Positions 14,401 to 45,821 of a stretch of DNA of 64,000 bases are shown here, in pieces. The stretch lies in contig JADDTR010000023.1 in the NCBI GenBank assembly GCA_015345905.1, positions 186,001 to 250,000 on the forward strand. Direction: 5' to 3'. A model generated the notes under the pieces. The model was not told the DNA's origin. It made no database searches and saw only the letters and a program-made list of their open reading frames with translations. This DNA comes from Aotearoamyces nothofagi. Taxonomy: Eukaryota > Ascomycota > Leotiomycetes > Leotiales > Tympanidaceae. Position 1 is the stretch's first letter. Every line of letters begins with the position of its first letter. The position numbers and the translations under genes were made by a program.

Positions 14401-14451
14401 AGCAAAAAAAAAAAAAAAGCAAGGCCCCCCTCAGCACTCGCCGCCGAGCCG

Positions 14452-16632: not shown

Positions 16633-17757
16633 TCATTCTCTCCCCGCCTCGGCGCCCTCGACAACCCCCGTGGCCAGGTGCGCTTGGCCCTGGCGAATGA
16701 TCTCGGCAGCATTCTCCGCCGAGACGGCCTGCTTCCGCTTCACGTAGACCTTGAGTCCGGGAACCTTGAGCATAAAGGCCACAATCGGCTTCTTCAGCGG
16801 CAGCGTTCCATGGCGCTCCTCGTAGAGCATGCACGCGACGGCGAGCATGATGGCGATCCAGTACACGTTGTACGAGATCACCGAGCCATACGTGGCCGAG
16901 TTCTGCCAGCCCAGGAGCGCCTGGAAGACATCCCACCCGTTGTCGACCTCTGGGTTGCAGCAGTTGACATGCCAGACGCTCTGCCTGATGTTGTACGACC
17001 CTGGTCCGTCGCCTGCCTCGGCGACATCGCCGCCAACCTTGACAGAGAAGGCGTGGAACTGCAAGCTCCAGACGGCCCTGGAAAACATGCCTGCCGCGAT
17101 CAGATACAGCACGCTGGTAGAGGCAATCAGGAAGATCTGGATCGACATGACGTTTCCGCCGCGGTAGATGAGGTATCCGACGAGGAGACCTGCCAGCAAG
17201 CCGGTCACGACGGGCAGCGGGAACGACGTCGCCGGGAGTCCCAGCGACACGCCGCCCACAAACACGACAGCCTCGACTCCCTCGCGGAGCGTTGTGATAA
17301 AGGGCAGGAGGAACATGACGTACCGCCTGCCAAAGGAGCCGAGCCATGACTTGGCGCTGTGGTGCTTGGACCTGTCGACCAGAGACTGTGCAATCTTGAC
17401 CTTCCACTTCTCCTTTGTCTTGTTGATGCGCAGCAGGGTCAGGCCCATGACGGTAATGATGAGGGTGGCAACGAGGTAGAAGATGCCCTCCCAGAGATCC
17501 TCAGACTTGGACCAGATATCCCTCCCCAGCCCGTAGAAGACGCCGATGAAGGCGCCGCCGATGACCAGGCAGATGGCAATGCCGGCCATGGAGCCCGCCC
17601 ACACCTGGCGCACCAGGCGCTTGTAGATCTTCTGGTCCTGGTCGGGCTGGCCCAGGCACTGCTTCAGGAAGGACAGCAGCACCGAGACGATGATGACCGC
17701 CTCGAGGCATTCTCGAAAGACGATGAAGAAGACCTGCACGGCAAACACAGACGGCAT
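16633..17757 (-). CDS. FTR1: high-affinity iron permease Ftr1
   Basis: A single-exon protein of 374 residues with seven predicted membrane helices and no cleaved signal. Both REXXE iron-binding motifs of the Ftr1/OFeT family are intact: RECLE near residue 15 and REGVE near residue 158. The extracellular loop has the family's Asp/Gly-rich segment, and the C-terminal tail is Lys/Ala/Glu-rich. In the plasma membrane Ftr1 works with a Fet3 ferroxidase: Fet3 oxidises ferrous iron and Ftr1 imports the ferric product. The FET3 gene is divergent, about 2 kb away, the usual arrangement for co-regulation. The start at MPSVFAVQVFF matches the family N-terminus. Confidence 0.95.
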   Translation of the reverse strand: MPSVFAVQVFFIVFRECLEAVIIVSVLLSFLKQCLGQPDQDQKIYKRLVRQVWAGSMAGIAICLVIGGAFIGVFYGLGRDIWSKSEDLWEGIFYLVATLIITVMGLTLLRINKTKEKWKVKIAQSLVDRSKHHSAKSWLGSFGRRYVMFLLPFITTLREGVEAVVFVGGVSLGLPATSFPLPVVTGLLAGLLVGYLIYRGGNVMSIQIFLIASTSVLYLIAAGMFSRAVWSLQFHAFSVKVGGDVAEAGDGPGSYNIRQSVWHVNCCNPEVDNGWDVFQALLGWQNSATYGSVISYNVYWIAIMLAVACMLYEERHGTLPLKKPIVAFMLKVPGLKVYVKRKQAVSAENAAEIIRQGQAHLATGVVEGAEAGRE

Positions 17758-19742
17758 GGCGCTGTCGATGGCGGTTGGTTGGAGGGGGGAGGCACGGGAA
17801 GCGCTGGCTATGTCGAGATGGCAAACATCGACGTAGGAGACAGGAGGCAGGATGGATGGAGGAGCAGAGTAGAGTAGAGCAGAGGAGAGCAGAGTAGAGC
17901 AGAGCAGAGCAGAGCAGAGGAGAGCAGAGCACGCACAAGACTAAATATTGAGAGGACCCGCGAGCAGTGGTGGCTTGACTAGGGTAGGATAGGTAGGTTA
18001 GGCTGATTAGGTAGATTAGGTAGGCAGGTAGGCAGGCAGGCACTGTACTATACTATACTTACTAGACCACACTGTATACTGTACTGCCTAGGCAAGGTAG
18101 GACCGCAGGCCTTTGCTGCCCTGCCTGCCTCTTGCTGCCCTGTCCTGCCCTGCACTGGCCTGGCTTGGCTTGGCCTGTCACCCCAGCCTCTTGCGCCCAT
18201 GCTGGCTGGCTGGCTGGTGACAGCTGCCCGGCATAGAGGTACAGCAGTCCCCAGGGCAACACGGCCAGCAGGGAAAGTAGACACTGCACCGCACCGCACT
18301 GCACTGCACCTAGCTCGCAGCCTGGAATACGCTACAGACGCTATCGACGCTACCGTAATAGCCACCGGAGCCACCGTAGCCACTACTACTCCGGACAGCC
18401 ACTACTGTGCAGCCGGCTAGAGAGCCCACCCCACCATGCCAGCAGGCCCCCCCCCCAGACAAGACACGACACGATACGATGACTGCCGGCCATGAGCTGT
18501 GTGCGAGAGCAGACCCGACACTTAGCTGAAAGCTTGGTAGGCACTGTGGGCGCCGTGGGCACCGTGGGTGTGCCTGGATGTCCCCTACACATGCCCTATG
18601 CATCCCTAGACGTGCCTAACAGACACCCTGTACATCCCTATACATCCCTAACAAACACCCTACACGCGCACCCTCCACAGCGACCCTCGTACCCACCACC
18701 CGTATCCTACAGTGGCTCTCTCTGTCTGTCTGTATTGTACCTCCGCTGGCCCTGACAGCACCGTACAGGCCCGCCCGCCTGCACAGCGAGCGTCCGCCCC
18801 GGCCAGCCAGCCCACGCCCTGGGTTCGGGGTTCGCAGTCCGGGCGTCGCGCCGTGAGCTGCCTAGTGCGCGGCAGGTCTTGCTGCGCGCAGCTCTTCAGC
18901 AGTCCGGGATCGTCCAGCAGCTATGCTCTGCTGCCCTGCCCTGCCCTGCCCTGCCCTGCCCTGCTCCTCACCGCCCTGCTGCTTGCCCTTGCCGCTCCTG
19001 CCTGGGGTTTGTATGTTATCTGATCATCCGATAGTCCCACAGCCCACGGCCCCACCGCGAATCCACAATCCGATAATCACCGCTGGTAGGGGTTGGGGGT
19101 CGGCCGCGCGAAACCCTAAACTGTATATTCTCGCCGTGGGCGCTGGACGCTGGGCGCTGGATGGATGCTGCGCGCTGCTGGCGCCGTGGCGTCCTGTCCT
19201 GTCTGCCACCGTGTGCTGGCTGGCTGGCTGGCTGGATGGGGATGGAGTTCGGGGGATGCAGAGTAACATGGACCGCCCGACCCTCTTTTCCCTCTTCTCC
19301 CTCCCCCGTGCGCGCGCTGTCTGCCTTGGGCTGGCTCTGGCCTTGCAAAGCCCTGCCTCTGACTCCGGCTCCGGCTCTGCTCTGCTCTCTGCTCTCTGCT
19401 CTCTGCTCTGCTCTGCTCTGCGCGCACCGCCCGCTTCGTACAGTAGTGTAGTACGGCGGAGATGGCTGGTGCGTGTTGAAGCCGAGGGGAACAAGCTTCT
19501 TGGCCTTCTCCTCTGATCGATCTTGAACTTAATCCATTCGTTCGTTCATATATTCATATACATCTATATATATATGTACATAACTTCCTCACCTGGCCCT
19601 CCAGCACCGCCACCATCCAGCAGTCCCCAGACGAGGCCAGATTCCAGAGCCAGGCCTGCCAGAGGCGTTGATCGGAGAGTTTGCGTATATTTCCCACCGC
19701 CTGCCGCCTTCGTCTGGTCGGAAGCATACTGCCTCGTCAGAG
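17758..19742. promoter_or_regulatory. divergent FTR1-FET3 intergenic region with microsatellites
   Basis: About 2 kb between the start codons of FTR1 and FET3, with no credible gene. It holds AGAGC/AGCAG repeats (17860-17935), (TGCC)n and GGCT runs, a CTGCCCTGCC array (18925-18965), GGCTGGCT runs and an ATATATAT tract near 19568. One SreA-type site lies at 19016-19024. As the shared upstream region of a divergent iron-uptake pair it should carry their promoters. The repeats may be recent and unrelated to control. Confidence 0.65.
19016..19024 (-). promoter_or_regulatory. SreA/Sre1-type GATA site in the FTR1-FET3 promoter
   Basis: TTATCTGAT on the + strand is ATCAGATAA on the - strand; with the next base it gives GATCAGATAA, the full ten-base Sre1 form. 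It lies about 0.7 kb before the FET3 ATG and 1.26 kb before the FTR1 ATG. This is where an iron-sufficiency repressor would be expected to act; binding is inferred. Confidence 0.6.
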
Positions 19743-21629
19743 ATGGCCATCGTGGATCGGGCTGCCCTCTGGGCCGCGTCGCTGCTGCTGCTCTTCGGCT
19801 GGTGCTCAGCAAAGACCGTCACCTACGATTTCAACGTCACCTGGGTGACGGGCAACCCCGACGGCGAGACGGACAGGAAGGTCGTTGGCATCAATGGCCA
19901 GTGGCCTCTGCCGGTGATCGAGGTTGACAAGGGCGACCAGCTGGTGGTCAACATGCACAATGGGCTCGGCGACAAAGCTGCCTCGATTCACTTCCACGGC
20001 ATGTTCCAGAACGGCACCAACGAGATGGACGGCCCTTCGATGGTGACGCAGTGCCCCATTCCTCCTGGCTCCGACTTCACCTACAACTTCACCGTCAACC
20101 AGAATGGGACGTACTGGTACCACTGCCACACCGACTACTGCTACCCAGATGGCTATCGCCAGGCCTTTATCGTCCACGACAGCGACGCCTACTTCAACGA
20201 CCTCTACGAGGAGGAGCTGGTCGTGACGATAAGTGACTGGTACCACAAATTGGTCGAGGGCATCGCTCCAGACTTTCTGTCTCTCTACAACCCCACTGGC
20301 GCCGAGCCCATCCCGAATGCTTTTCTACTCAACGATACCCAGAGCTCAAGCATTGCTGTCAAGCCCAATACGACATATCTAATGAGGCTCATCAACGTTG
20401 GCTCATTTGTATCCCAGTACTTTTATATCGAAGACCACACCTTCCAGATCGTCGAGATCGACGGCGTATACACGGAGCCTACAGAAGCCGACATGCTCTA
20501 TCTCGCGGTTGCTCAGCGGTACTCGATTCTCATTACAACCAAGAACGAGACGGACAAGAATTATGCCATTGTAACCGTTGCCGACTCGGAGCTGCTCGAT
20601 GATATCCCGTCTGACCTGCAGCTCAACAATACCAACTGGCTGGAATACAATGCAGGCGAGCCACATCCCGAAGCCAATATCACCGTAGACACGGCCTCGG
20701 ATCTCGACCCGTTCGACGACTTCACTCTCGTCCCATATGACCAGATGGAGCTGCTGCCGGAGCCGGATTATGAAATCAGCGTTACTGTCATCATGAATGA
20801 CTTGGACGACGGGAAAGGCTACGCATTTTTTGACAACATCACTTATACCGCGCCCAAGGTGCCTACCTTGTTTTCCGTCCTCTCCAGTGGGAATCTCAGC
20901 ACCAATCCCGAAGTCTACGGCGAGTTCACGCATCCCTTTGTTCTCAACCACAACGACGTTATCCAGGTGGTTGTCAACAACGGCGACACGGGCTCTCACC
21001 CCTTCCATCTACACGGGCACAACTTCCAGGTCATCAACCGATCCCCGGCTTACGGACCAACCTTCTACGACTATGCAGACGGCGACCCAGTGGCATACGA
21101 TCCGAACAACCACACCGATTTCCCTTCCATCCCTGCCCGGAGAGACACGCTCATCCTACCCCCACAAGGCTACTTTGTCATCCGCTTTGTGGCTGACAAC
21201 CCTGGCGTGTGGATCTTCCACTGCCACATCGACTGGCATCTAGCGCAAGGCCTCGGCATGCTCTTTATCGAGGCTCCAACCCAGATGCAGGAACGCATGT
21301 CCGTCCCGCAGCAGCACTACGACGTCTGCTCGGCCGCCGGGATCCCGACCGAGGGCAACGCCGCGGCCAACAAGGAGGACTACCTGGACCTGACTGGCCA
21401 GAACAGGCAGGTCGCCTTCCTCCCCGGCGGTTTCACGCCTCGCGGTATCGTCGCGCTGGTGTTCTCGTGCGCGTGCGCCTTTCTGGGTATCGCTTTCATC
21501 GTCGTGTATGGCCTCAGCGACCTCAAGTTCCGCGACGAGAGCAAGATAGCTGTCGGGACAGTCATTCCTGCACCGAAGGACACGGTCGAAATGAGCCAGA
21601 TGCCTGTGGAAGAGGGATATCGGGACTAG
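19743..21629 (+). CDS. FET3: Fet3-type multicopper ferroxidase
   Basis: 628 residues from the ATG at 19743, chosen because it begins a clear signal peptide (LLLLFGWCSA). Three cupredoxin domains follow. Copper ligands are in place: HFHG (83-85), HCH (127-129), HPFHLHGH (from 419) and HCHIDWH (from 493). A single C-terminal membrane span (about residues 560-585) and a short cytosolic tail anchor it with the active site outside. It oxidises ferrous iron using oxygen and hands the product to Ftr1. An oddity is that the second copper motif reads WYHCHTDYC where relatives I recall have WYHSHTDGQ, adding two cysteines four residues apart. An upstream in-frame ATG at 19668 is unlikely to be used. 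Confidence 0.93.
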   Translation: MAIVDRAALWAASLLLLFGWCSAKTVTYDFNVTWVTGNPDGETDRKVVGINGQWPLPVIEVDKGDQLVVNMHNGLGDKAASIHFHGMFQNGTNEMDGPSMVTQCPIPPGSDFTYNFTVNQNGTYWYHCHTDYCYPDGYRQAFIVHDSDAYFNDLYEEELVVTISDWYHKLVEGIAPDFLSLYNPTGAEPIPNAFLLNDTQSSSIAVKPNTTYLMRLINVGSFVSQYFYIEDHTFQIVEIDGVYTEPTEADMLYLAVAQRYSILITTKNETDKNYAIVTVADSELLDDIPSDLQLNNTNWLEYNAGEPHPEANITVDTASDLDPFDDFTLVPYDQMELLPEPDYEISVTVIMNDLDDGKGYAFFDNITYTAPKVPTLFSVLSSGNLSTNPEVYGEFTHPFVLNHNDVIQVVVNNGDTGSHPFHLHGHNFQVINRSPAYGPTFYDYADGDPVAYDPNNHTDFPSIPARRDTLILPPQGYFVIRFVADNPGVWIFHCHIDWHLAQGLGMLFIEAPTQMQERMSVPQQHYDVCSAAGIPTEGNAAANKEDYLDLTGQNRQVAFLPGGFTPRGIVALVFSCACAFLGIAFIVVYGLSDLKFRDESKIAVGTVIPAPKDTVEMSQMPVEEGYRD

Positions 21630-22742: not shown

Positions 22743-24068
22743 TTACGGGCCCGAGTTGCTGGAGTCAGCTTCGGACATGTATTCCTGGTTTTCCGAGTCT
22801 TCTTCGGAGTCGTGTTCCTGATTTTCTAAATCTTCTGGCAATGTAGAATATATCGCTGCCTCTGTGTATTGACGCTTCGCATGAGGGGGATACAGCGGTT
22901 GTGATGAGCGAGATACGCGGCGCTTGTTTGGAGAGGGAGATAGGGACCTCAAAATCGCGGTGGATAGCTCCAGCTGACGCGGTGATATATCATCACTGTG
23001 TCCTACCCTAAGCAGGTCTACCGGGTTGATAGTAGCCGGTTCGGCGGCGAATTCGATGCTTGGTGCTGTGAGAACGCCAACCAAGGCCTGCCGTAGGACT
23101 GGCAGTTCTACTGTGGAGGCCGTGCTTGAGTCACTACTTGACTCTGAAGGAGAACCGGCTTCTTCTTCTTCAGGAGTCGTATTCCACGAGAAGTTCGCGG
23201 CCAGGTACATGGCGACAGAATTCATCTGTAAGGACCGCTCTAGTGCCTCGTCCGAAACAAACGAGGATGTAAAGTCGGCGTCGAAGTCGGCGTCGAGGTC
23301 GGACAGAGGAAGAGCAGGTGGAGAGCTACAAGGGGTCTGAAGGGGGAGTTGGATGCAAGAGTATTCACGCCGGGTCTCCATTGTGACCCAGAACCGGAAC
23401 GACTTGCCATTTATCAGGAGGGTATTCTCATCAGACATTGGGTCGAAGACGATCATCGCAGCGTGCATCGCAAGGAAGCTCGTTCAGAGGACTAGCTTAT
23501 TCCAACAGTCCGAGTAGTTTTTGTAGATCTGCATTTCGGTCCAGAAGGTACCAGTGGAGCCATCATGAGCGACAAGTGGGATCGGTACATTCGCAAAGCC
23601 AAGGCAATCGGTGATGGCCACGCCCTCAGGGTATGGCTGTATTGGTATACTCTGGAAGTGTTGGTCCCACACGTCGTAGGTCATCGTACAACACGTAGAA
23701 CCTGTATCGATGATAATCTCCATGAAGCCGTCACTTCCAGTGGCCATATCCGCTCTCGCGCACGTGAAGTTTTCAAAGAACTTACCAGGATCCCAGTTAC
23801 CTATAGTAGGGCAATACGTTGCTGGCGGCGATATACAAAAAACAGTATCATCATCGTAGAGGCGTTGAAACCGCTCCCTTCGAGATAGCTTCATCCATTC
23901 CTTGAAGAAAGGTAGCTGCCAGCTAGAAATGCATTGGTTGAGTTTCTCAAGCGCAAAGTCCACTGAACATATTTCTTCTTTTCCCTCGGGGAAAGTGGAG
24001 AGGAGCTGCTCAAAGTAGTAGGCCAGTTCTGGACGATTTATTCCGACTGCTTGTAAATTTGTGTCCAT
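22743..24068 (-). pseudogene. retropepsin-like reading-frame region, possible retroelement-derived fossil
   Basis: The - strand holds coding-like sequence with an aspartic-protease active-site motif, IIDTGST, in the context expected of a retropepsin-like domain, with a Leu-Gly-rich flap-like stretch further on. After it comes an acidic, Ser-rich tail of more than 200 codons ending near 22743. I see no reverse transcriptase, integrase or terminal repeats nearby. The recognised part looks broken, with about one interruption. It may be a gene captured from an LTR element or a fungal retropepsin-like gene; age unknown. Confidence 0.45.
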
Positions 24069-24149
24069 GACCTTCGGGACTTTGCCAGGAATCGTAGCTA
24101 AGAGGGTAAGTTGTGCTTCTTATGAGATGCTTGTTCAAAACCATAGACA

Positions 24150-28051: not shown

Positions 28052-29250
28052 CGGATGTGACAAAGCTTCAAATTTGATTGCAAAATGCTTAAGTGTATCA
28101 ACAACCCAGTCTCTTCAGCCTTGTGACTGGAGTAGCTTTGGCACCTCTTCCCGTCATCCTAGGTCGCAGATATTGGACCAACCCTGCACCTGCATTCAGG
28201 CCGATCTTTAAGACCAAGGTAGTTGAACTAAATAATTACAGGGACAGTATTCTTCCTATTTACCTTATTCTTTAAGGACATGGAGTAAAACTTCCCATAT
28301 ACCCTCTTCTAAACCGATCACGTCTGATAACCTGTATAAAACAGCTCTATCTATTCTGCTTTAGGTATTTGAAGCAAAAGCTATGTATATAATGCCAGTA
28401 ACAGCTCAAGATGACCTAAAAGGTTCCATCGTGTATAAGCTCAGGTTTCGCATTGATTCTTTTGGAGGTCGGGCATTATCGATTCTTCACCTAAAGGTAC
28501 GCGTGATTCGCAAACCCTGCAATCATTATGCCTATAAAATGCCGTATTATAGAAGAAGGGCAAAAAATACGAGTGCCCAAAGCCACGGACTCCGAGTAAA
28601 ACCATACACAAGCAGTGGAAACAGCAGGCGGTGTAGTTTTGCAGCGCCACATCACATATACGCAGTAGCAGAAAAGTTGGGGATTCTATACACTCCGGAG
28701 GCACAAACCTATCACAGCTTTGGGCCTCATCGCCGACCTGTTGCGCCCGAGGGGAAATTTTTGCGCTATAAGGCCTTGGCTTTTAATCTCACTATCCCAA
28801 TCACACGGCCTGGTGCAAAGGGTGAAACAGTTGACGCCCATGCTATCTGTTTCCCAAGCAGGTTCGGCCACAGATCACGACAGCGAGGTGTCGCAATGGC
28901 ACATGCATACGTCAAACAGGGGAAAGCGGCGGCTAAACTGCCTGTTTTGGTTGTCCTTCGATGTTGAAGAATTGCTGCAGAACGATAAGGAGGTGCGGGC
29001 TTGTTCTGTAACCAAGGTAGCGGGCAGCGGGCAATCGTCACAGCTAGCAGTTCATCACGAGTCAAGTTAGCGTGACCCCCAGAATCTACAGCATCGGCAC
29101 CGGGAGATTTGCGTATTAAATGCCGGCGATGGCCCACATTTAGTATCCGATATTGCGGTTGATAATAACGGTCTCTTCTGTTTTCTCTTCTTGACTTTTA
29201 GCAAGTGCAGCTCGATCGAATGCTTCGTAACGTCTCCTTTTGTCCAAAGA
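28052..29250. other. spacer without a recognised gene
   Basis: About 1.2 kb. The longest open frame (28383-28967, +) has a low-likelihood translation with no motif and is not counted as a gene. No RNA gene or repeat was seen. Confidence 0.45.
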
Positions 29251-31009
29251 ATGCGGATTGCCTGCTTGCAGTTCTCTCCGGTCGTCGGTGACGTTGAGAA
29301 TAATCTACTGAGAGCAGAGCAGATCCTAAGCAGAGCCAATCCGCAGGATATAGATCTGTTGGTGTTACCAGAGTTGGCGTTTACTGGTATATATACTCTC
29401 ACTTTGGTTATGTAGAGTCGGGAAGGTACAAGAGACGGAGGTGCAGTCGCTCTGCATTGCTGCTCTCTACTGTTGCTGCTTCAAGCTCTAGGCCTTCAAG
29501 CTCACGCGTGTATTTTGTTTCTGTCTTCATGGAAACGGTTTTTGAATTGAAATATTAGCTGACTATATCAGGTTATAATTTCAAGTCTCTGAAGCATATA
29601 CTCCCTTACCTTGAGCCCACGACTTCAGGCATCAGCTCATTATGGGCTCGCACCATCGCCCTTAAATACAATTGCAATGTCACAGTTGGGTATCCAGAGA
29701 AGGTAGATGTGGCTCCAAAATGGCCGGCGTAAGTCATATTATCTGCTTTCTGTGATAAGTACTGATGTTCGAGGCGTGAAGAGATCTTGAATATTATAAT
29801 TCGGCTATCACTGTTAACAGAGATGGAGAAACAATTGCTAATTATAGAAAGACACATTTGTATTATACAGATGAGACTTGGGCTCTAGAGGGAGCTGGAG
29901 GCTTCTGTGACGGAGTCATAGCAGACATGGACGGTAGGAAGGTCGCTATGGGAATATGTAAGTAGATTTCATCTTTTGGGCAAAGGTTATATGACATCTA
30001 ATTTTAAATTTACTGACTTTTAAATTTAGGCATGGACCTCAAGTAAGCGCTTTTCAGACCTGAAGCAGCCCTTTATTAACAACTTTATAGTCCCTACAAG
30101 TTTGAGGCGCCGTGGAGCTTGTGTGAATTTGCGAACCATATCCTCTACCAAGAGGCAAACCTCGTCATTATCTCCATGGCATGGCTCACTCGCGAAGATG
30201 CCGGGTCTTTCAGCAGGTTTCCACATGAACCCGACATGGAGACACTTTCATATTGGCTATCGAGACTTGAGCCTCTGATCCGGCAAGATGATGATGAAGA
30301 GATTGTTGTGGTCTTCGCGAATCGTACTGGTGTTGAAGATGAGGCTGTCTATGCAGGTACAAGTGCAGTACTCGGCATTCAACTTGGAGAGGTCAAAGTG
30401 TACGGCATTCTAGGTCGAGGCGAACGTGAGCTACTTGTTGTCGATACCGTTGAAAATCCGAAAACAAAACTTGTCTGTGAGCCAAGCTCGGCCATCTCCA
30501 ACGAAAGTGTAGAGAGTCAATATTCCGCAGACACTCAATCTACAACTCCTGAAACAGATCCGTTCCTCACAAGCACTGATGGCCCGTTATTAGAGATCGT
30601 TCCTGCGGCACCTGTCGAGCCTGAGTCTACACATGCCTCCTATGATCCCGAATCTGTGAAACCTGAAGATTCTTACGAGCTGCTGAGTTCAAGTATTGAC
30701 CCAAAAGACGCTGCTACGCCGCCGCCTGCAGTACTTAGTCGCCAAAGGCCATCATCTTCGAAATCGCCTAATGAAAGTCGAAAAAGGCAGTGCGCGGATG
30801 AAAGATCAAAGCCGTCTGTCCGTGCCGACTACAACGGCCAAGAGCAGCGAGAGATCGCAGCGCTACCAATCATAGGACCGCGTGCAGACGGATTTCCTCA
30901 TTCAGCCTCGGAAGCGACTGATGATGAAGATTGGGCCAGAAGTCGTGGACTGGGCCCATCAGAGAAGCGTTCTAGTCTGTCTCCGAGACCGCAAAGTACT
31001 GTATGGTGA
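29251..31009 (+). CDS. NTA1: protein N-terminal amidase Nta1
   Basis: Five exons (29251-29386, 29572-29728, 29821-29957, 30030-30042, 30091-31009) join in frame to 453 residues. It is a nitrilase-superfamily enzyme with the catalytic Glu in LPELAF (E41), Lys in NYRKTHLYYTDE (K108) and Cys in MGICMDLNPYKFEAPW (C144). Nta1 deamidates N-terminal Asn and Gln of proteins, feeding them into the Arg/N-degron pathway. Exon 4 is a 13-base microexon that carries most of the Cys codon and the following Met-Asp-Leu. The last 170 residues are a Ser/Pro/Glu-rich tail of low conservation. All introns are GT-AG. Confidence 0.9.
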
Positions 31010-32110: not shown

Positions 32111-33431
32111 ATGCGACCATCTCTACCTTTCTTCCTCTGCAGTGCTTTTGCATCATCGAGTAGAGCTCTACTCGTCGCACCAGATTCAACGTGCGCTGTA
32201 TCGTGTGGTAATGTCCTGCAGAGCACGAGTGGCAGTGAACTTACCTGCAGTGATGGAGATTACTCAGCCACAGCCGGACAGACTTTCGAGAAATGTATAG
32301 GATGTGAGATTAGCAGCACATATGTTGACCCTAAGACGAATCAGACAGACTTACAATGGCTTCTTTGTAAGTGGCCAGCTCAGAATACGCTGAGATCAGT
32401 CTTGTTAATTGGACTTTACTAATCTCATGTTGTCCTAGATAACCTTCGATACGCAGCATCGTGGTGTATATTTGGATACCCAAATAATACAAACTTGGGA
32501 AATAGTCCATGCCTTACCAGCTCTGCCTGCGAACCATTCCAAGGAGCTTTTGAAGAAGGTTCTCTGGCAGTGAATTCAAGCGATGAATACGAGTATTGCT
32601 CATCATGGAATGACGCTTACCTTTCACCATGTACGACTTGTCTACAACAGTTAGGAGACGAATATTATTTGACCAACTGTAAGATCTTTAACGGATAGAA
32701 GATAACCATAGCTAATGTGCTGTCTAGTCCTCATTGCTCTCAGCGCTGGTTGCCAGCAAAAACCCGCTTCAGGCTCCACCCTCTCTCTCTCGGGCTCGCT
32801 CTTCTCTACCACTACTGTTGACATCACCGCAGCATCCGGAGTCGCATCTGGTACGTGGACTCCAAAAGGTGGAATGACTCTTGGAAGTAAGATTGGCATC
32901 GCTATCGGCAGCTTCGTTTTCATCCTAACCCTCGTCGGCGTCTTAATTATATGGCGTGGCAAACGTAGGCGACGTGCCATATTAGCCAAGTTCGCCTCTA
33001 CATATCGTGGAAAATACCCCGGTGATAATAGGCCTCGTTTCCAAGACAACAGTCCACAGAGCGACAGTAACAAAGCCTTCATGAGCCAGCAATGGCCAGG
33101 GACAGACGACAGCCCGCAAAGCACGACTGGATGGAACGGCGAGAAAGCATATTTCTCGCCTTATTCCAGTCTGCATTCAAGTCCGATGAGTCCCGATGAG
33201 ACCACAAGTCGTTCGCATGAGTGGCCAGTGCCAGGTGGAATTGGGATTGGCGGTCATTGCGCAGGTGAGCAGGATATGATTGAGATGAGCCAATTACGAG
33301 AAGTAGAGCAGCAGAGATGGGAGGAAGAGGCTGGGCAAGCTGGGTTTACGACTGTGTCACCTACGCCGATCATTAGGAAGCCAACCCATGCTAGAGAACT
33401 GCGGCCAGAGGGAATGGGAGCCGCGGTATAA
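32111..33431 (+). CDS. secreted Cys-rich single-pass membrane protein, fungal 'LPXTG-domain' family, copy A
   Basis: Three exons (32111-32366, 32439-32678, 32728-33431) give 399 residues. A signal peptide is followed by a Cys-rich ectodomain: CAVSCGN, CSDGDYSATAGQTFEKCIGC, then YNLRYAASWCIFGYPNN, PCLTSSACEPF, YCSSW and CTTCLQQL, and FLIALSAGCQQKPASG. Next are a Ser/Thr-rich stalk, one membrane span (GIAIGSFVFILTLVGVLIIW), a basic RGKRRRR stop-transfer and a cytosolic tail. The tail carries FSPYSSLHSSPMSPDE, an IEMSQLREVE stretch and GFTTVSPTPIIRKP. Both introns are in phase 1. Fungal databases often label this family 'LPXTG-domain-containing'; it is not a sortase substrate by evidence here. 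Function unknown; two paralogs lie within 8 kb. Confidence 0.85.
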
Positions 33432-35253
33432 GATGCAGAGACCAGCATGAAGTTATGTGATTTAGAGCGGCAGCTATTCCCAGTGTCGTTCGAGGCGTTT
33501 ATCTGCCATTTAGAATTTCTAGCATTTGCCGTATTTACAGCGCAGGCGGTGGAGCATAGGCCCATGCATGAGCATTCATTCCAATCACAGTTCCGAACTC
33601 GACTACAGTACGCAGTGATAGCGGCAGTCTCCCACGGGTTCAGCACGTGATATCCAGCCAGCACAAGCATGCCAAGCCAACACGGCACAGAGGCCGTTAT
33701 CGTGGCCTCCATTCTCAAGACGGAAGGAGACTTGGGGGCGCCAAAACAAATGTCGCCATCCATCTGCCATCTGCCATCTGCGCGCCTCTCAGCAATTACG
33801 AGTACAATCCCGACAGGTCGGCACAGGCGCCTAATCTCGGCCGCTGATAGGCTACCCATCCTCCGCCCCGCACTCCTCCATCCGACGTCTCCTTTCGACT
33901 CCAACAACATGAAGGAAGCAGTACGACGAGGCCAAAGCTGTAAGACAACTCCACAACAGCGTGGCGGGGCATCGGATTGCCCACACTCATTGCCGGTAAT
34001 GCGGGAACTCATCCCGACGAGATTGGGATCTATTGGCTGGCAAGCATGCCGATGGGCGAGGACGCGGTTTGCCGATGCGGCAAAGTGCATGCACAGGACA
34101 GGACAGATCCCGACGTCCTGGATAGGTTAACTGAAGCGGCGCGTACGAGGCGAGCTTCTGGTTGAGAGGGCCGCATGGCTGGACACGGCAGCCAATGGTA
34201 AGATTCGATAGGACTGCGGCTTTTGTTTGGCTTTTGGCCTCGAGGAAAAGAGTTCCGCAGGCTTCTGTACAACCACACGGCACGGCAGATGGTTTGGCCA
34301 TGTATGGTACTCGAAGGAGCGTGATAGAGAGGTCGGCTTCTGGGATATAGATGAGGGTGTGCGGAGGTGTGCAGCTGTGGGCAGAGGTGTGCTACGTAGG
34401 TAAAGAAGCAGTAAGTTGAAGCAGGCAGAAGCAGGCAGAAGCAGACATATAACTATGAATCCTTCACATAGCTCTTCGTACCGTAAGTGCTTCTCGCCCT
34501 GCTTTATCGCCGCATCCTCCTTACACTCCACCAAGTGAGAGCCCGGCCAAGCCGGCAGCTTCTCTCTCTCTGTTTCCCCATCTCCCGCTCTCCCCGGCCG
34601 CAAGCAGGCCATCAGATCTGTGCTATCTGCGCCGCCGGCAGAGGCATACAAGGTATGCTGTGCATTTGCATTTCGAAATCATCCGTGCTGTGAAATGTCA
34701 TGCTTCCGGGGCTAAGGAGTGGAGGGGTGGCTCTCTAGTCTTTACCCGATTCGGCCGTTTTCTTTTCCAACATTATATTGCTGCTCATGTCGGGTGATGA
34801 CAAACATTCACATTCTCATAATGCTTCGGCATGCACTGGGGAATATTATGGAGCCTGGTTGGAGTCATTGCTCTCTTTTCTGCTGTTATTTCTTCCTTGT
34901 GTCGTTGCTTTTGTCGTCTTTTTTCTGACAATAGACAGACGGACGGACGGATATGTAGGCAGGCGAGTAGGCCTATCATGTGTATTATACCTCGCTGTTC
35001 GTCGACTTCGATCAGATACTCTCTATCTGATATCCAGAGCTACTCTGCCAGGTCTTGCATCTATCCAGTTACCTCAACCCTATCTATCTATCTATCTATC
35101 CATTGATCTATGCTTGGAAAAAGAACAGCAGCAACAACAACAACAACAACCGCCCGGATCTAGACCGGCATCAAATTCCAATCTTAAGTTCCAGCGAGAT
35201 AAAATAGATCTTTGGATATTACCATTTACAACTTCATATATACATATGTGAAG
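33432..35253. other. spacer without a recognised gene
   Basis: About 1.8 kb. Simple repeats appear near its end: CTATCTATCTATC near 35085 and CAACAACAACAA near 35130. Open frames across it have no recognisable motif. Confidence 0.5.
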
Positions 35254-36120
35254 ATGCTCTCCTGCTGCCTTCCACGCAGATCCAAAACCGTCGAGTCGAA
35301 TTTCGATCCGCGCTTCGGCGCCGCCGACATCTCATCTCCAAACCCCGGCGCATACACCAACCTCACGAAACCCGATCCTCTGCTCCTCGTCCCGATCCCC
35401 CTTCCCACGCACGCATCTCGCCCTCAGCTCTCCGCCGACGCCCAAACCCACCATCCGCAAACCAACACACCAGCTACGCCCCAGCAAGCATCGCCCTCCA
35501 GTCTGAGATCCAGCTCAACGTCCGCCTCGAGTCCGGTGTATCGCGATGGAGAAAAGCGGCCGCGACAGGTATCGAGCCTGACGCAGTTCTCGACTGGTTC
35601 TGAGCACGACGCTGCGATTGGTCTGGGCATGACTCCTGCTTCTGCTCCTGCTGCTGTGCCCGCACCGCAGCCGCGGGCGCCACCAAGCAACAAACGCTTC
35701 TCATCGCTCCGCATGGCACCCATCGCCGTCCACAAAGCCTACATCCCGGACTTCAGAAACTCGCTCAGCGCACACACATCCGGCTCCGCATCCGCATCCG
35801 CATCACCATCAACAGATCTGACAACGCCAACGACCAACGGCACGCTAGCGTCGAAAACCAAACCCAAAACCGACCTGCTCTGGAACGAGAATAAGCCTTC
35901 GATGATGGTTCTGCCTACTGTCGCGCCTACTACTGGTAAAGAGCGTCTAGATGAGGTTACGAGGGATGGACTCGTCGCTGACGCGAAGGCGAGGATCAAG
36001 CAGCGCTTTTCGCGACACTTGACGCGCCTCGAGCCCGTGCAGAGGTGGCCGAAGAGGGTCGATGAGCAAGTGAGTCCAGATAGTGTGGCGAGTATAGAGC
36101 AGTGGCCTGGTGCTATGTGA
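35254..36120 (+). CDS. hypothetical Ser/Pro-rich fungal protein
   Basis: 288 residues from the ATG at 35254, where AAGATG is followed by MLSCCLPRRSK, a Cys pair at positions 4-5 that could be palmitoylated. The middle is disordered, rich in Ser, Pro, Thr and Ala (SGSASASASP), and the end is basic then acidic (ADAKARIKQRFSRHLTRLEP). No catalytic domain is seen. The even codon use and clean single exon support a real gene. I do not recognise it. It is convergent with the next gene. Confidence 0.65.
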   Translation: MLSCCLPRRSKTVESNFDPRFGAADISSPNPGAYTNLTKPDPLLLVPIPLPTHASRPQLSADAQTHHPQTNTPATPQQASPSSLRSSSTSASSPVYRDGEKRPRQVSSLTQFSTGSEHDAAIGLGMTPASAPAAVPAPQPRAPPSNKRFSSLRMAPIAVHKAYIPDFRNSLSAHTSGSASASASPSTDLTTPTTNGTLASKTKPKTDLLWNENKPSMMVLPTVAPTTGKERLDEVTRDGLVADAKARIKQRFSRHLTRLEPVQRWPKRVDEQVSPDSVASIEQWPGAM

Positions 36121-36639
36121 TCGATCGTCTTTACTTCTGCTTCTAGTTATTTATTTTTATTTCTTGCTCGAGAGTTGAGATTGAATTATGGGAGATATTT
36201 CTAGGGGTTTTCGGAGGTGGTTATTTGCTGCTTTGTTCGCCTTGGGAGGGAGGTTGGATTGGGGTTGGAGGATTAGATTTTTTTTTGGGATAGGAGGATG
36301 GGAGGATGGCAAGACAGCATCCTTGGTACCGATCGAGATATGATCTCTATCAAAGATATCCGGGGCTGCATCTTATTCTGGATATTATTATTCCTTAGTT
36401 CGAACTTTTACTTCTCCAAGTATATTTCAAACTATTCGCCCTCCCACCCATATTCAGTAATACCTCGTCCACTGATTCAGGGATAACTCAGTTACTTATA
36501 CAGGCTAAAGTGAAACGACGCTAACATATTCCGCTGCTAACACGACATACGAAAATCCTATAACTGCTTCCAAGAAGTGCCCATTTGATAATCACCTTCT
36601 CCTATCCTCCCATCCATATCCCAGCATCCCAAGCCTGTC
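36121..36639. other. convergent spacer
   Basis: About 520 bases between two gene ends. It has a poly-T run near 36280 and nothing else of note. Confidence 0.5.
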
Positions 36640-38025
36640 TCATTCCCCAACCCATTGCCTACTACCACTCTTCGAGGCCTCCGGGACCTTGATGATCGGC
36701 GCAACCGTAAAGCCTCTACTTGCTGCTTCCTGCATCCAGTCATGCTCCTGCTGCATCTCCTCCCGATTCTGCCGCCCCAACTCCCTATCGTGCAGCTCGA
36801 TTGCCTCGGACGTCTCTCCCCTATCTGGCTGATAATGCCAATCCCACGACTGTTTCATATTCAACACATCCCTGGCACTAACTGGGCTTGAATATTTGCT
36901 CGAGTACGGCGAGAAATTGTGCTTTTCACCCTCTCCTGCGTAACCTGTGTCGGGGCTGTTGTCTTGAGTTCCGGGGTATGGTGTCCATTTGGTGTTTATT
37001 GGAGGGCCTAAAGGAGCTTTTGCTCCAAAACCAGTGCATTCTTCTCGTCTTTGCGCGAGTTCCGCGAGACGTGCTTTACGCCGTCGCTTTCCGCACCAGA
37101 CGGCGCAAAAGCCAGATAGGCTAAGGAGAGCAACAAGAGTGGCGACGCAGATACCAACCATGGTGCCGAGGGAGAGTGGACCGACATGTTGAGCAGATAT
37201 GGCAGCGGTGGCGGTGGAGCTAGGAGTCGTGATTGTAATGGGGCTTTGGGAAAAGATAGAGCCGGATATTGAGAGAAGGGAGCCGACAGTAGGTTGTTGA
37301 CGACATCCTGCAATAAGAGCCGTGAAGACTTGATAATATGTTAGTGATATCAAGCAGCCAGCGCTTGAAAGGACCATACAATTAGATATGAGGAAATCTG
37401 TGCCGAGTTGCTCCAAACAGCTCGTACATTTTGTTTCAAATTTTGTGTTAAAACCTGAGCAGTAGGCATATGAACTCGCACCTGGCGATAAATTCTCATA
37501 TGAAATACTGCTCTGATATAGACCGCATGCTGTATTGGTGATACATGGCTTTGTTGGTGTCAATTAAAGTCTGGTGGTCGCGATTGGGTGACTTACTGTA
37601 TCTTGGGTCATCGAGTTGTTTGGATATCCCCACAAGCAAACACTCATTGTATAGCGGAGGTTATCTGCAATCCAGGACGCTGTCAGCTTAGACTTCTAAT
37701 AATATAGCGTAAATAATGAATCTGTAAGGAGGTCTTCGTAAAGGATGAATTATAGATACTAACATAACAGCCATTGAAGATCCGTGTCCCCGCTTCCAGG
37801 ATCTACTGCAGTGCTATTCACTTGGCAGTTGGCACAAGCCTCGAAGATCTGACCAGAAGCGGTATTCGCAAAATCTGCATCTTGACATACGATTTCGGTG
37901 GGAAGTGTTGTTGAGACATTACCACACACAGAGGCACATTGCTGGTCGGGCACAGCTCGAAGGGCCTGGCTCAGAGAGGTAGAGAGGATGAGCCAAATTA
38001 TTAATGCGGAAGTTAGAAGATTCAT
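36640..38025 (-). CDS. secreted Cys-rich single-pass membrane protein, fungal 'LPXTG-domain' family, copy B
   Basis: Four exons (38025-37764, 37664-37597, 37548-37380, 37328-36640) join in frame to 395 residues. The start at 38025 gives a good signal peptide (MNLLTSALIIWLIL); an upstream in-frame ATG is at 38079. The ectodomain follows the family plan: CASVCGN, CQDADF, FEACANCQ, YNLRYTMSVCLWGYPNN, PCITNTACGLY, YCSGF, CTSCLEQLG and FFTALIAGCRQQPTVGS. A span (VGICVATLVALLSLSGFCAVW), GKRRRKARL and a cytosolic tail with FSPYSSKYSSPVSARD, SEAIELHDRELG and GFTVAPIIKVP follow. First and last introns sit at the same places and phase as in copy A; the 48-nt middle intron is extra. Function unknown. 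Confidence 0.85.
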
Positions 38026-39072
38026 ACTAAATATTGTTGTCGAAACAAAAAGTATGATGAATGGTAACGATTGTATCAATATACAGCGACGGAATAATGC
38101 TTCACACCAAGAAAATAAGTAGCCAACTCAGAACGACTCTAAAAGACACAAACCAGAACAAACTCCGAAAACCGACATTGGAGCATTCCAACGACGATAT
38201 ATAATCGCCCATCACTACAGTAATGGTGAGATGTGATCCCTCTCTCCGCACTTGGCTGCAATAATGTAGTGTTATCACAATTAATACTGAAGTTCGGATA
38301 TTCGGGTGCCTTGCCTCGCAGACCAATTCGAGCGGCCATCAACAATATTTCTGCAGGGTCGATGTCCGATTGTCACATTACAAGGCTGCTAATTCGACCG
38401 CCGATCAACTACCGACAGGTCTGTGGATGGGATGGTTTATGTCGTAGTGCATAATGTGATAGTGATTCGATAATTGCTTGGCTGATTTTGAAGTATCTCT
38501 ACTAGGATCGACTGTGCTACGATTGCTATCGACTTGATACGGGAGTAATAGCTCAGGTTGCTTCGTTTTGTCGCTGTCGCAGCATAGTTGTCGCATGATC
38601 TCCGGCGCCAATAAGGGATAATATCTCTTTGCAAGTTGGTGGTTACTGTCACATCAATTATAAATGTTGCGACATATCATATATGACCACCCTCCTTTTA
38701 CCAGCGCCCCGTCAGTAGAAAATATATCTTGATATAAAGCGACATAGATCAATTCAACCAAGTCATGTCTTCGGCAACTAGTGTCTTGCGATTTCGAAAT
38801 TCGTAGTTGTACCTGGTAGGCACTTCATTAGAATCGCAATCCCTCTTTAATGGAAAGGTGGCAACGAACATTGTAACGACCCAGATCTGATAGGCTATTG
38901 ACAATATAGTAGTAGCTGGATCCTTGAACTGCGATAGCTGGACGCATTGGAGGGTTGCATCGACATGCATCCTGGATATTTGGGTGATCCTCGAATCATT
39001 TCGACGTCTCTTGAATCCCTGATATGTATCGCAGACGGCAGCTAACGTATTGATTGTTATCATATCGTCTTC
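38026..39072. other. spacer without a recognised gene
   Basis: A 104-codon frame on the - strand (38749-39063) has no motif I know, and I do not call it. The rest has no gene. Confidence 0.4.
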
Positions 39073-39484
39073 GCTTCAGCGTTCAGATAGAGTTGTCTCC
39101 GAAGACAAATATGGCTGCATGGCGCGATATTCTTCTTCCATGTATCAAGCCATCATCTTATGAGTACCGTCTTTATCCATGCCTAGCCCTATGCTATTGG
39201 TTGGCGAGGACCTAAGATGCTGGCCAGGCATATGAGCAGAGTGCTTTGGAAAGACGTGCTTTTTACTATCTGCTTCGTTATACGGTTGTGGAGCCCTAGG
39301 ATGTTGGCCATTTGGTAATGCGTACTGTTGCCCACTACCTGCAAGTTGCTCATTGTAGTAGTCGCTAGTGGTCTACCCCTGTTGAGGTTGTCTAGAAGAT
39401 GGCTTCCATTCGTTTAACTTCGTGCTGGCCAGCTTGGAGTCTGCATATCCATTTCCATGAGAGCCATCGTAAGCGCCGTACCGT
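39073..39484 (-). pseudogene. decayed cytosolic tail of copy C
   Basis: In the frame shifted from the copy C stop, the translation is coding-like: KHDERYGAYDGSHGNGYADS, KLASTKLNEWKPSSRQPQQG, then DYYNEQLAGSGQQYALPNGQ and SIGLGMDKDGTHKMMA, ending YLSSETTLSER. Two stops (TAG after QQG, TGA after MMA) interrupt it; both fit C-to-T or G-to-A change from Gln and Trp codons. One small indel near 39490-39500 would explain the frame change. The alternative is an unrecognised intron, but I see no good splice sites there. Confidence 0.6.
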
Positions 39485-40394
39485 TCATCGTGTTTGCTTT
39501 AGTTTTGCTGCTCGGTTCTTCCGATACTTGACTAAGCAGAATGCCAACAATCCAATGGCAATCAAGACAGCACCGGTGACTATACCGACCAAGGCACCAG
39601 TTGTCAACCCGGTAGAGTCCTTGACTGATGCGGTAGTTGAAGTGCCGTTAGAGACAGATGATATCGTAATCCACGTTGTATTAAACAGGCTCCCTTCGAG
39701 TCCAAGGATCTGACCTGGCTTTGGTTGTTGTATGCATGCGGCCTGGAGAGCGAGGAGAACTGAGAAAGAGTTAGTGATAGGTTCCAACCAAAACCTTATA
39801 TACATACAGTTTCCCAAGTAAGTCTGATCAGTGCTAGAATGAAGACATTGGCGACAGGGAGTCAAACTATCAAGAGGAAACGTCCCATTCGCCCCACCAA
39901 CGCAGTATGAAAACTCTGTCTCATTGGCAGGGTTCAAGTTGCCAGACTCCATCGCCTGCTCAAGTGGAGCACATGCGTAGTCGATGTTACATGGGCTAGA
40001 TATCGTCTTAGAGGCGTTTGGAAATCCATATAAACACATGGCAAATGTCGCTCGAATATTGTCTATTTGCATGAGATTAGAGGAGACGCAAGTATTGAAA
40101 CATATGAGAACACCTACATAAGAAAGCCGCTTGATCGTTGGATGGCCCATTGACTGAAGTGCTAGTTTGCAAGCAAGTGACACATTCTCTAAACTTCTCG
40201 CCAGCTTCTGTGCTATTGTAGTCGCTATCGCTACATGTCAGATCTGAGTAATCGGTGGTAAACGACGTCTGGTCCGAAATGTTATAGGCTGGATTGTCGA
40301 TGCAGACTGATGCACAGGCCGAGTTTGGTGTTGCTTGCAGTGCCAAACACGGCGGCAGGGCTGCCAGTGTAAAAAGACATGTTAGTTTCATCAT
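39485..40394 (-). CDS. secreted Cys-rich single-pass membrane protein, fungal 'LPXTG-domain' family, copy C (tail truncated)
   Basis: Three exons (40394-40118, 40062-39808, 39759-39485) encode 268 residues. A signal peptide leads to CASVCID, CSDSDYNSTEAGEKFRECVT, YNIRATFAMCLYGFPN, PCNIDYACAPLEQAME, YCVGG, CRQCLH and LLALQAACIQQPKPGQ, then a Thr/Ser stalk and a membrane span (GIVTGAVLIAIGLLAFCLVK). The frame stops 14 codons after the span. Immediately downstream another frame reads as a natural His/Gln/Pro-rich cytosolic tail down to about 39073, with two in-frame stops. Copy C therefore seems to have lost a tail of about 135 residues. Intron places and phases equal those of copy A. Confidence 0.8.
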
Positions 40395-43753: not shown

Positions 43754-44728
43754 TCACGTCGTAACCAAGGTCCCCTCGATTCCCAAACCCCTTTCAAACA
43801 TACACCTCCCATTCGGACAATTAGCATGAAACACAATAGCTTCTCCATCGCTGGTCGGTGATGCACTTCCAGGCGACGTCAAACCATAATCCCCCGTTGT
43901 CAGCAATGGCAATTTACTCTTCGTATAAGGTCCCCCCACACTCTCCGCCGTGGCATAAGAGATATCATATGCCGGGTCAAGATAGCATTGACTCGAGAAA
44001 AACAGAATATACGTCGCATCCGCCGTTCTGATGATGCTTGGTGCCTCGACGAGCGGTCCATCTGCGGCGTCACGATCTAGGATCTGAGTAGGGGATCCTA
44101 GCGGAGTCACGCCATCGGGTTCCATCGCTTGTAGCATTATGGGTGTAGGCACGATTGGCTCCACGGTGTTAAGGCAAGCACCGCCGTGGCCGATGCTATT
44201 CCCGTCGACTTTGTAGACAACATAATAGGTCCCGTCAGAATCAACAAATCCGGACGGATCAATTGCGCCTCCTTCAGTGAGAGGACATGCCAGAGGCGTA
44301 TCAGATGGAGTATACGGGCCTATAATCGTCTTCGAAGTTGCTGTTCCGACACAGTGATGGGCCTTTTGAATAGCATGCTCTGCTGCGTAATACAGAACAT
44401 AGCTCCCGTCAGCAACTCTCAGCACGTCAGGTGCCCAGATCTCGTTCCCGTCAGACCAGCTGCCAACTTCTGAAAGTGCGTCGTTAGGAGATACGGTCCA
44501 GGGACCTTGGATATCAGGTGCGGAAGCTATTTGGACGTGTATGGAACCGCTGCTTGTGCCAAATGCGTACCATGTCCCATCTGTGTCTTGTATGATTGCA
44601 GGATCAGGGAAGTTGGAAGCGATGGCTGAGTTTTGGTGCCCTCTTTTGCATCTTGATTCTAGCGGCCAAGCAATCACAGAGCATACTGCGAGTAATACTA
44701 TAGCCGTAATGAACTTTGGTCGACACAT
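43754..44728 (-). CDS. secreted glycoside hydrolase family 43-like enzyme
   Basis: 324 residues in one exon with an N-terminal signal peptide (ITAIVLLAVCSVIA). The five-bladed beta-propeller GH43 acid residues are visible: Asp in NFPDPAI (near 42) as base, Asp in GGAIDPSGFVD (near 157) as pKa modulator and Glu in LVEAPSII (near 228) as acid. Blade motifs include DGTWYAFGT, EIWAPDVLR and DGTYYVVYK. GH43 enzymes act on arabinan, arabinoxylan or galactan side chains in plant cell walls; the exact substrate cannot be read here. Length is normal and the gene looks intact. Confidence 0.9.
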   Translation of the reverse strand: MCRPKFITAIVLLAVCSVIAWPLESRCKRGHQNSAIASNFPDPAIIQDTDGTWYAFGTSSGSIHVQIASAPDIQGPWTVSPNDALSEVGSWSDGNEIWAPDVLRVADGSYVLYYAAEHAIQKAHHCVGTATSKTIIGPYTPSDTPLACPLTEGGAIDPSGFVDSDGTYYVVYKVDGNSIGHGGACLNTVEPIVPTPIMLQAMEPDGVTPLGSPTQILDRDAADGPLVEAPSIIRTADATYILFFSSQCYLDPAYDISYATAESVGGPYTKSKLPLLTTGDYGLTSPGSASPTSDGEAIVFHANCPNGRCMFERGLGIEGTLVTT

Positions 44729-45821
44729 AACGTATGAGACTCGGTGCCTTTCAACTTCTTCCTAAACTAGGCAGGTATCAATACAAAAGATTTTGTAACG
44801 CTGCTGTAAAATATCACCAACAGAGAGGAGCTGCACCGCAAAATATATGGCTGAAACACACTTCTGGCGCTCTCTGTCACTTATAGTAAGAGATCCCACA
44901 GTTAGGTTCCTAAATACTTTATACTTTACCAATCCCCGGGGTCCCCGTGTCGTTCCTGCCCGAGAAACACCTCACACAAGGCATCATCATGGCGCCGCGA
45001 GGGAGTGCCACAACTCAAGGAATACCAAGACTTGCTATTTTGCCAACAAGTCTATATCGGGCGGTGCCGATTATATCAGACTTAGGACCTGGCATGATCT
45101 AGCGTGACTGATTGGAGACCTCGCAATGCCACAGCCTCACAGTCGCGTCAGCTTAGCCAACTGTGCAATCTTATCAGCCGGTCTGGCCCAGGATGAAACA
45201 CTGCCACGCAGCTGAGATACTTGGAGGATAGTTTCGTGTGGTAAGCTTATCGGATCGCAATATCTCGTATCCGTAAATCGGCCTGGAAGGATTGATTGGT
45301 AGGGCCTTGGCGAGTCGTGGACTTGTTGTTTTAGACCCACGTGCTGTACAGTACATACATGTCGGCCTGAGATTTGCAAAACCGATAGCCTTCATGATCA
45401 AAATTGATAATGTGCGCGAATTGTGTGGCAAGAGATCCGGGGTGCAAGGGAAATAAAAACTGTGGTTGTATGAGTCTCGAATACACTTTAAAGAGAAATG
45501 GAGATGAGAGGTGAAGAGCCAGTTATCTACGTCGGTCATGAGGGCGACGAATGTGACGCTTTCAAGTCGCAAAATCTTCTAGGAAAACGGTTATACCTAC
45601 TACCGTGGACGGAATCACAACAGCATAACGATAATCACCACAAATTTCATAATCAAGACGGAAGCATTAGGTACAAGCGAATTATCCTAACTCCATTTTT
45701 GTGCCGTCGAGAGAGAATCCTGTATGATACAGTAGCCAACGCCTGTGAAACGTATGCAAACCAGCGACCATATATGATTTGAAAATCTGACCCGAGACAC
45801 CATACACACGCGTATCTGGAC
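44729..45821. other. spacer without a recognised gene
   Basis: About 1.1 kb between the GH43 start and the CBF5 stop. No gene or repeat was seen. Confidence 0.5.

What the first reader, a model, noticed from the sequence alone, without database searches (positions are those of the whole stretch)
32111..40394. Local family of three Cys-rich membrane proteins of unknown function
Copies A (+), B (-) and C (-) share a signal peptide, the same ordered Cys motifs (CxxVC, C.D.DY/F, FxxCxxC, YN(L/I)R, C.(F/Y/W)G(Y/F)P, PC.....C, YC, C..CL, AGC.QQ), a Ser/Thr stalk and one membrane span. They also share two phase-1 intron positions, so they arose by local duplication. From memory this fold is labelled 'LPXTG-domain-containing' in fungal databases without a function. 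Two copies keep long cytosolic tails, which suggests a sensor or wall-to-cytosol link rather than a simple wall protein.
Basis: partly seen in the sequence, partly recalled or inferred. Interest (0 to 1): 0.75.

Follow-up and report, generated by a model that had tools for sequence, protein, structure and literature searches.

The report
Three related fungal cell-surface membrane proteins
A fungal chromosome carries three old duplicates of a gene for a cysteine-rich cell-surface protein with one membrane span; two share a conserved inner tail that suggests signalling, one ends just inside the membrane, and the domain libraries searched here do not name them.

Summary
The window (a fungus; no genome held) encodes three paralogues at 32111-33431 (+), 36640-38025 (-) and 39485-40394 (-). 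Spliced, they are 399, 395 and 268 aa, 34-39% identical (BLASTP E 6e-77 to 8e-41). All share 12 cysteines, a Ser/Thr stalk, one membrane span and a basic stop-transfer patch. Both phase-1 introns sit at the same alignment columns; B has a third, phase-0 intron. Pfam, NCBIfam and PDB-sequence searches give nothing above cut-off; there is no LPxTG motif. The duplication is ancient: synonymous sites are saturated or nearly so. The tails of A and B match by themselves (34%, E 1e-5). C stops 14 residues past its span; the DNA beyond looks coding-like in another frame with one more stop, so C is probably truncated. Best reading: Wsc-like wall-to-cytosol surface sensors with a 12-Cys ectodomain that no searched library names, C being tail-less. 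The ectodomain may be an internal duplication of a 6-Cys exon module: cysteine spacing and introns hint at it, sequence scores do not. Function is inferred.

The parts
32111..33431 (+). Copy A, 3 exons, 399 aa: hydrophobic N-terminus (signal peptide by eye), 12-Cys ectodomain (Cys 28-174), Ser/Thr stalk (17 of 46 residues), membrane span about 221-239, tail about 160 aa
32367..32438 (+). A intron 1, phase 1, 72 bases, 9 residues before Cys 6
32679..32727 (+). A intron 2, phase 1, 49 bases, 8 residues before Cys 12
36640..38025 (-). Copy B, 4 exons, 395 aa: same plan, tail about 154 aa similar to that of A
37549..37596 (-). B-only phase-0 intron, 48 bases; unspliced it would put a stop in frame
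39485..40394 (-). Copy C, 3 exons, 268 aa: 12-Cys ectodomain, stalk, membrane span, only 14 residues after the span
39150..39484 (-). Stretch downstream of C's stop that looks coding-like in a different frame, with one stop in 111 codons: probable remains of a lost cytosolic tail
   Evidence: codon score 0.121; of 126 intergenic frames 1 scores as high, 11 have at most one stop, 0 have both

Best explanation
Three ancient paralogues of a fungal type I plasma-membrane protein. Shown from sequence: a hydrophobic N-terminus fit for a signal peptide; a 12-Cys ectodomain; a Ser/Thr-rich stalk; one span followed by a strongly basic stop-transfer patch; related cytosolic tails in A and B; no such tail in C. 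Inferred: the ectodomain sits in the wall (or meets partner cells or a host) on an O-mannosylated stalk and binds or is tethered to wall material. Stretch or clustering is passed through the span to the tail, whose shared GKRRR+A juxtamembrane, FSPYSS..SSP.S (Ser-Pro sites) and C-terminal PII..P motifs recruit a kinase or exchange factor, in the manner of Wsc/Mid2 sensors. C keeps the outside and the span but not the tail, so it would compete with, tune or simply anchor rather than signal.
For: Domain order by hydropathy and composition in 3 of 3 copies, long tail in 2 of 3. 12 of 12 Cys conserved at 34-39% overall identity. A and B tails alone match at 34% (52 of 155), E 1e-5 in a one-to-one comparison, so tail sequence outlived saturation of synonymous sites. 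Net charge +6 in the first 12 tail residues in 3 of 3. The same plan (Cys-rich head, Ser/Thr rod, one span, signalling tail) is described for Wsc sensors in passages of PMC2885430 and PMC9148135. C's downstream stretch looks coding-like in another frame.
Against: No expression, localisation, ligand or partner data. No WSC or Mid2 model among the Pfam matches of 3 of 3 copies listed to E 10, though HMMER's filters drop most matches above about 0.1. The Pfam matches that are listed are all below cut-off (best: Podoplanin for C, E 0.0016, 19.2 bits against 30, on stalk and span). No fungal collection could be searched for relatives. The stalk is short (46-49 residues, about one third Ser+Thr). 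The tail A-B match is modest. The signal peptide rests on hydropathy alone. C's broken tail could in part be an assembly error, and 1 of 126 intergenic frames scores as high.
Confidence: 0.5

Rival explanations
1. Structural or adhesive wall-membrane linkers without signalling: the ectodomain attaches the membrane to the wall or to another surface and the tail only holds cortical proteins or steers trafficking.
For: Short stalk, one span and basic patch suit an anchor; C, if it works, works without a tail.
Against: A/B tails share specific Ser-Pro motifs after long divergence.
Confidence: 0.25
2. Glycan or ligand receptors, analogous to plant double-DUF26 proteins: two 6-Cys lobes form one binding head; A and B transduce, C is a decoy.
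For: Two halves with matching Cys order and a C-x(10-16)-C-x2-C core. In A, spacing as similar in 68 of 20000 random placements, and introns at near-equal places. DUF26 domains have six Cys, a C-8X-C-2X-C core, assemble as tandems and resemble fungal lectins (passages of PMC6368629).
Against: No DUF26 model among the Pfam matches. The two halves show no sequence similarity above shuffles (99 of 200 and 53 of 200). Exon-only models, poor, list helices only, unlike DUF26.
Confidence: 0.15
3. Host- or competitor-facing surface proteins (effector-like or immune-decoy) under rapid turnover.
For: Cys-rich surface proteins in a small local cluster, with one probably truncated copy and low similarity among copies.
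Against: Shared tails of A and B and strict Cys conservation point to constraint; lifestyle of the fungus is unknown.
Confidence: 0.1

Closest known systems
Wsc-type cell-wall integrity sensors (Wsc1, WscA)
   Same: Type I plan: Cys-rich head, Ser/Thr-rich stalk, one span, cytosolic tail (PMC2885430, PMC9148135 passages)
   Different: 12 Cys in place of the eight numbered in the Wsc1 mutants; no WSC model among Pfam matches; no tail comparison with Wsc was run
Mid2/Mtl1 sensors
   Same: One span, Ser/Thr stalk, N-glycosylation sequons, tail
   Different: [quoted passage not shown] no Mid2 model among Pfam matches
Fungal genes labelled 'LPXTG domain-containing' (for example GME10862 of Colletotrichum graminicola, PMC10779208 passage)
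   Different: Homology to A-C not tested; A-C have no LPxTG motif, and fungi lack sortase (recalled)
Plant DUF26 (Gnk2) tandem ectodomains of CRKs and PDLPs
   Same: Two 6-Cys modules with a C-x(n)-C-x2-C core before one span (PMC6368629 passages; the span is recalled)
   Different: No Pfam match; DUF26 has helices on a beta-sheet and C-8X-C-2X-C, here x10 to x16

Membership tests
Wsc sensors | WSC domain at the N-terminus | tested here: not met
   Pfam scan of 3 of 3 proteins, listed to E 10 (filters drop most above about 0.1), shows no WSC model
Wsc sensors | Ser/Thr stalk, one span, cytosolic tail | tested here: met
   A and B meet all; C lacks the long tail
Wsc sensors | Tail activates Rom2/Rho1 and the wall-integrity MAP kinase | not testable with these tools
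   needs experiment
Mid2-type sensors | Mid2 domain, no Cys-rich head | tested here: not met
   12-Cys head; no Mid2 model among Pfam matches
CFEM proteins | CFEM domain with eight Cys (recalled) | tested here: not met
   no CFEM model among Pfam matches of 3 of 3; 12 Cys
DUF26/Gnk2 tandems | C-8X-C-2X-C core and Pfam match | tested here: not met
   15 and 10 residues in place of 8 in A (positions); no such model among Pfam matches
LPXTG wall-anchored proteins | LPxTG motif before the span | tested here: not met
   0 of 3 proteins hold LPxTG
One paralogous family A-B-C | Common descent: aligned Cys and intron positions | tested here: met
   12 of 12 Cys and 2 of 2 phase-1 introns at the same places; E 8e-41 or better
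Internal duplication of a 6-Cys module | Detectable similarity of the two halves | tested here: inconclusive
   Sequence: 99 of 200 and 53 of 200 column shuffles as good, and with Cys columns held 134 of 200 and 69 of 200; hhalign E 0.041 over 12 columns, probability 1.3%. Spacing, copy A only: 68 of 20000 random placements and 4 of 120 permutations as similar; intron placement 3 of 462 positions; all post hoc

The most novel reading that the evidence does not exclude
An undescribed fungal receptor class whose head is a pair of exon-duplicated 6-Cys modules (the two phase-1 introns mark the repeat), with signalling members (A, B) and a natural tail-less member (C) that could act as a decoy or brake on the same ligand.
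Probability: 0.2. Interest if true: 0.65.

Novelty: new variant of a known kind. Interest (0 to 1): 0.38.

Why it matters
Described fungal surface sensors of wall and surroundings fall into few families (Wsc, Mid2 and signalling mucins are those named in the passages read). A Cys-rich family with a conserved tail that no Pfam model named here is a candidate for another one, and the tail-less copy offers a natural comparison of head against tail function.

Tried and rejected
Members of known domain families: Pfam listed to E 10, NCBIfam to E 1 (a prokaryote-oriented library, so weak evidence) and PDB sequences to E 10 gave nothing above cut-off. Sub-threshold matches taken as chance: Pfam DUF5993, EphA2_TM and DUF6085 (A), Antimicrobial11 (B), Podoplanin and TAP_C (C); PDB RNF25 and sodium/calcium exchanger chains, E 0.097-1.3.

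Relatives elsewhere: viral contigs (21 pattern matches, 0 confirmed) and genome contigs (47 pattern matches, 0 confirmed). Fungal genomes are not held, so this says little about fungi.

Internal repeat by sequence: not supported. I first thought the halves clearly homologous; the shuffles do not show it, so only the layout argument is kept.

Fold: models of exon 1 (A, B, C) and exon 2 (A, C, pieces of B) have mean pLDDT 50.1 and 49.5, too poor for a fold search, so none was run.

dN/dS: not usable. NG86 dS is undefined in 5 of 7 comparisons and 2.6-3.5 in the other 2; YN00 failed in 7 of 7.

C's lost tail: my first control (108 frames) used overlapping windows, some of which ran into the tested stretch. 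It was repeated with 126 frames from non-overlapping windows elsewhere: 1 frame scores as high, none also has at most one stop. The claim is kept as probable only.

Iron link through the FTR1/FET3-like genes: the 3 ATCWGATAA sites lie at 14.4-19.0 kb, none near A-C (9 of 100 shuffles have as many).

Intron retention: introns B3 and C2 stay open if kept. Both have CTAAC near the 3' end, so splicing is assumed.

Papers: 8 of 10 searches used (listings only, capped). Passages were read in 7 papers: PMC6368629, PMC10779208, PMC2885430, PMC11596484, PMC9148135, PMC6062891, PMC6286046. Of those that mention LPXTG, only PMC10779208 concerns a fungal gene so labelled; PMC11596484 concerns a predicted domain in an apoptosis inhibitor, PMC6062891 a Bacillus hit for a nematode gene, PMC6286046 a thrips transcript. 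The other papers listed for LPXTG were not opened.

Full report
What was checked. The window behaves as fungal genomic DNA: short GT..AG introns and eukaryotic housekeeping genes (proteasome subunit, Cbf5-type pseudouridine synthase). That it is a filamentous ascomycete is my judgement; no genome is held. Gene models were built for the three copies from the sequence. A runs from 32111 to 33431 on the + strand in three exons. B runs from 38025 down to 36640 in four exons. C runs from 40394 down to 39485 in three exons. The proteins are 399, 395 and 268 residues long.

Is it real. BLASTP gives A-B 39% identity over 390 columns (E 6e-77), A-C 37% over 245 (8e-44) and B-C 34% over 257 (8e-41). All 12 ectodomain cysteines align in all three. 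Both phase-1 introns interrupt the same residues: the Tyr of L[Y]N(L/I)R and the Phe after Asn in (T/S/G)N[F]. All seven introns have GT..AG ends and a match to a permissive branch motif starting 15-22 bases from the 3' end; five of seven would introduce a stop if retained. B's extra intron is phase 0 and is one of those five. tblastn of the three proteins against the window finds no fourth copy (best other place E 0.06).

Anatomy. Hydropathy gives a hydrophobic N-terminus and one later span in each copy; no signal-peptide predictor was available. The stalk between the last ectodomain Cys and the span is about one third Ser+Thr (17 of 46, 17 of 47, 16 of 49). The first 12 residues after the span carry net +6 in 3 of 3. 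N-glycosylation sequons before the span number 3, 4 and 7. There is no LPxTG motif in any copy.

Age. blastn among the three loci with some flank finds only short matches for A-B (12-23 bases, E 0.19-0.65) and none for A-C and B-C. NG86 synonymous distances are undefined by saturation for A-B and A-C and 2.6-3.5 for B-C, with dN 0.52-0.82. The family is therefore ancient, and 'local duplication' can only mean that the copies have stayed or come together.

Tails. The tails of A and B alone match at 34% (52 of 155 columns), E 1e-5 in a one-to-one comparison, with GKRRR+A..LA, PGT.D.SP, GEK..FSPYSS..SSP.S, GFT and PII..P in common. Because synonymous sites are saturated, this is evidence of constraint on the tail. 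C stops 14 residues after the span. The 335 bases beyond, taken alone, score 0.121 in a frame other than C's own, with one stop in 111 codons. Of 126 frames from non-overlapping intergenic windows (mean -0.020, sd 0.052, largest 0.124), 1 scores as high, 11 have at most one stop and none has both. An earlier control used overlapping windows, some of them running into the tested stretch, and is superseded. The three genes themselves score only 0.03-0.06, so the measure is weak. The simplest reading is that C once had a longer tail, apparently unlike that of A and B (by eye), and lost it by a frame break and a stop.

Internal structure of the head. The 12 Cys fall into two sets of six with a similar order of short and long spacings (4, 14, 16, 3, 30 and 6, 23, 11, 3, 21 in A). 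For A, 68 of 20000 random placements and 4 of 120 permutations are as similar, and the second intron falls in the phase and, within one codon, the place that the first predicts (3 of 462 positions; about 4% after allowing six reference Cys). These tests were made after seeing the pattern. Direct comparison of the halves gives nothing: 99 of 200 and 53 of 200 column shuffles score as well at two gap settings, 134 and 69 of 200 when the Cys columns are held, and hhalign gives E 0.041 over 12 columns with probability 1.3%. Exon-only structure models are too poor to decide (pLDDT 50.1 and 49.5; helices only). The internal duplication remains a hypothesis.

What it is not. Pfam (3 of 3 proteins, listed to E 10 but with most matches above 0.1 filtered out), NCBIfam and PDB sequences offer no family above cut-off. 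The strongest sub-threshold match, Podoplanin for C (E 0.0016, 19.2 bits against a cut-off of 30), lies on the stalk and span. Scans of viral and prokaryotic contigs confirmed no relative. No fungal collection could be searched.

Comparison with the known. The plan is that of Wsc sensors: passages of PMC2885430 and PMC9148135 describe a Cys-rich head, an O-mannosylated Ser/Thr rod that acts as a spring, one span and a tail that signals, with clustering through the head. A-C share the plan but not the domain, so they may work like Wsc without being Wsc proteins. A passage of PMC10779208 says of a Colletotrichum gene labelled 'LPXTG domain-containing' that such proteins have not been reported in fungal pathogens.

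Verdict. A genuine, old, clustered family of single-span surface proteins with a head that no searched library names. A sensor-like role is the best guess (0.5). Interest is moderate, because every functional step is inferred.

Noticed in passing
16636-17880 (-) and 19710-21626 (+): Divergent FTR1 iron permease and multicopper oxidase (FET3-like) genes (Pfam). Of the three ATCWGATAA sites of the window, 19016 lies between the two gene starts and 14452 and 15322 lie downstream of FTR1 (9 of 100 shuffles have three or more). Such sites bind iron-regulatory GATA factors (recalled).
   Followed up: partly
22743-24119 (-): Two long open stretches in one frame separated by a single TGA, with a DTGST and a TSFLAMHAA stretch that recall retropepsin-like proteases (from memory); no Pfam match to E 1. 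Either a broken or a spliced orphan.
   Followed up: partly
35254-36120 (+): One open frame of 288 aa between A and B, rich in Ser/Thr/Pro, starting MLSCCLPRR (possible S-acylation site, by eye); no Pfam match above cut-off. Could be a membrane-associated partner, untested.
   Followed up: partly
37329-37379 (-) and 39760-39807 (-): The last intron of B and of C is a multiple of three without a stop, so retention would insert 17 or 16 residues with two or one extra Cys a few residues before the last Cys; the matching intron of A is not.
   Followed up: partly
29233-31006 (+): Probable carbon-nitrogen hydrolase gene upstream of A (PF00795 on window 29233-29412, E 3.3e-6), NTA1-like from memory; the last long frame 30080-31006 has no Pfam match.
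   Followed up: no
43757-44761 (-): GH43 glycoside hydrolase beyond C (E 3.3e-30).
   Followed up: no
11547-11919 and 14127-14401: Tandem arrays of 95-base units (3.9 copies) and 47-base units (6 copies).
   Followed up: no
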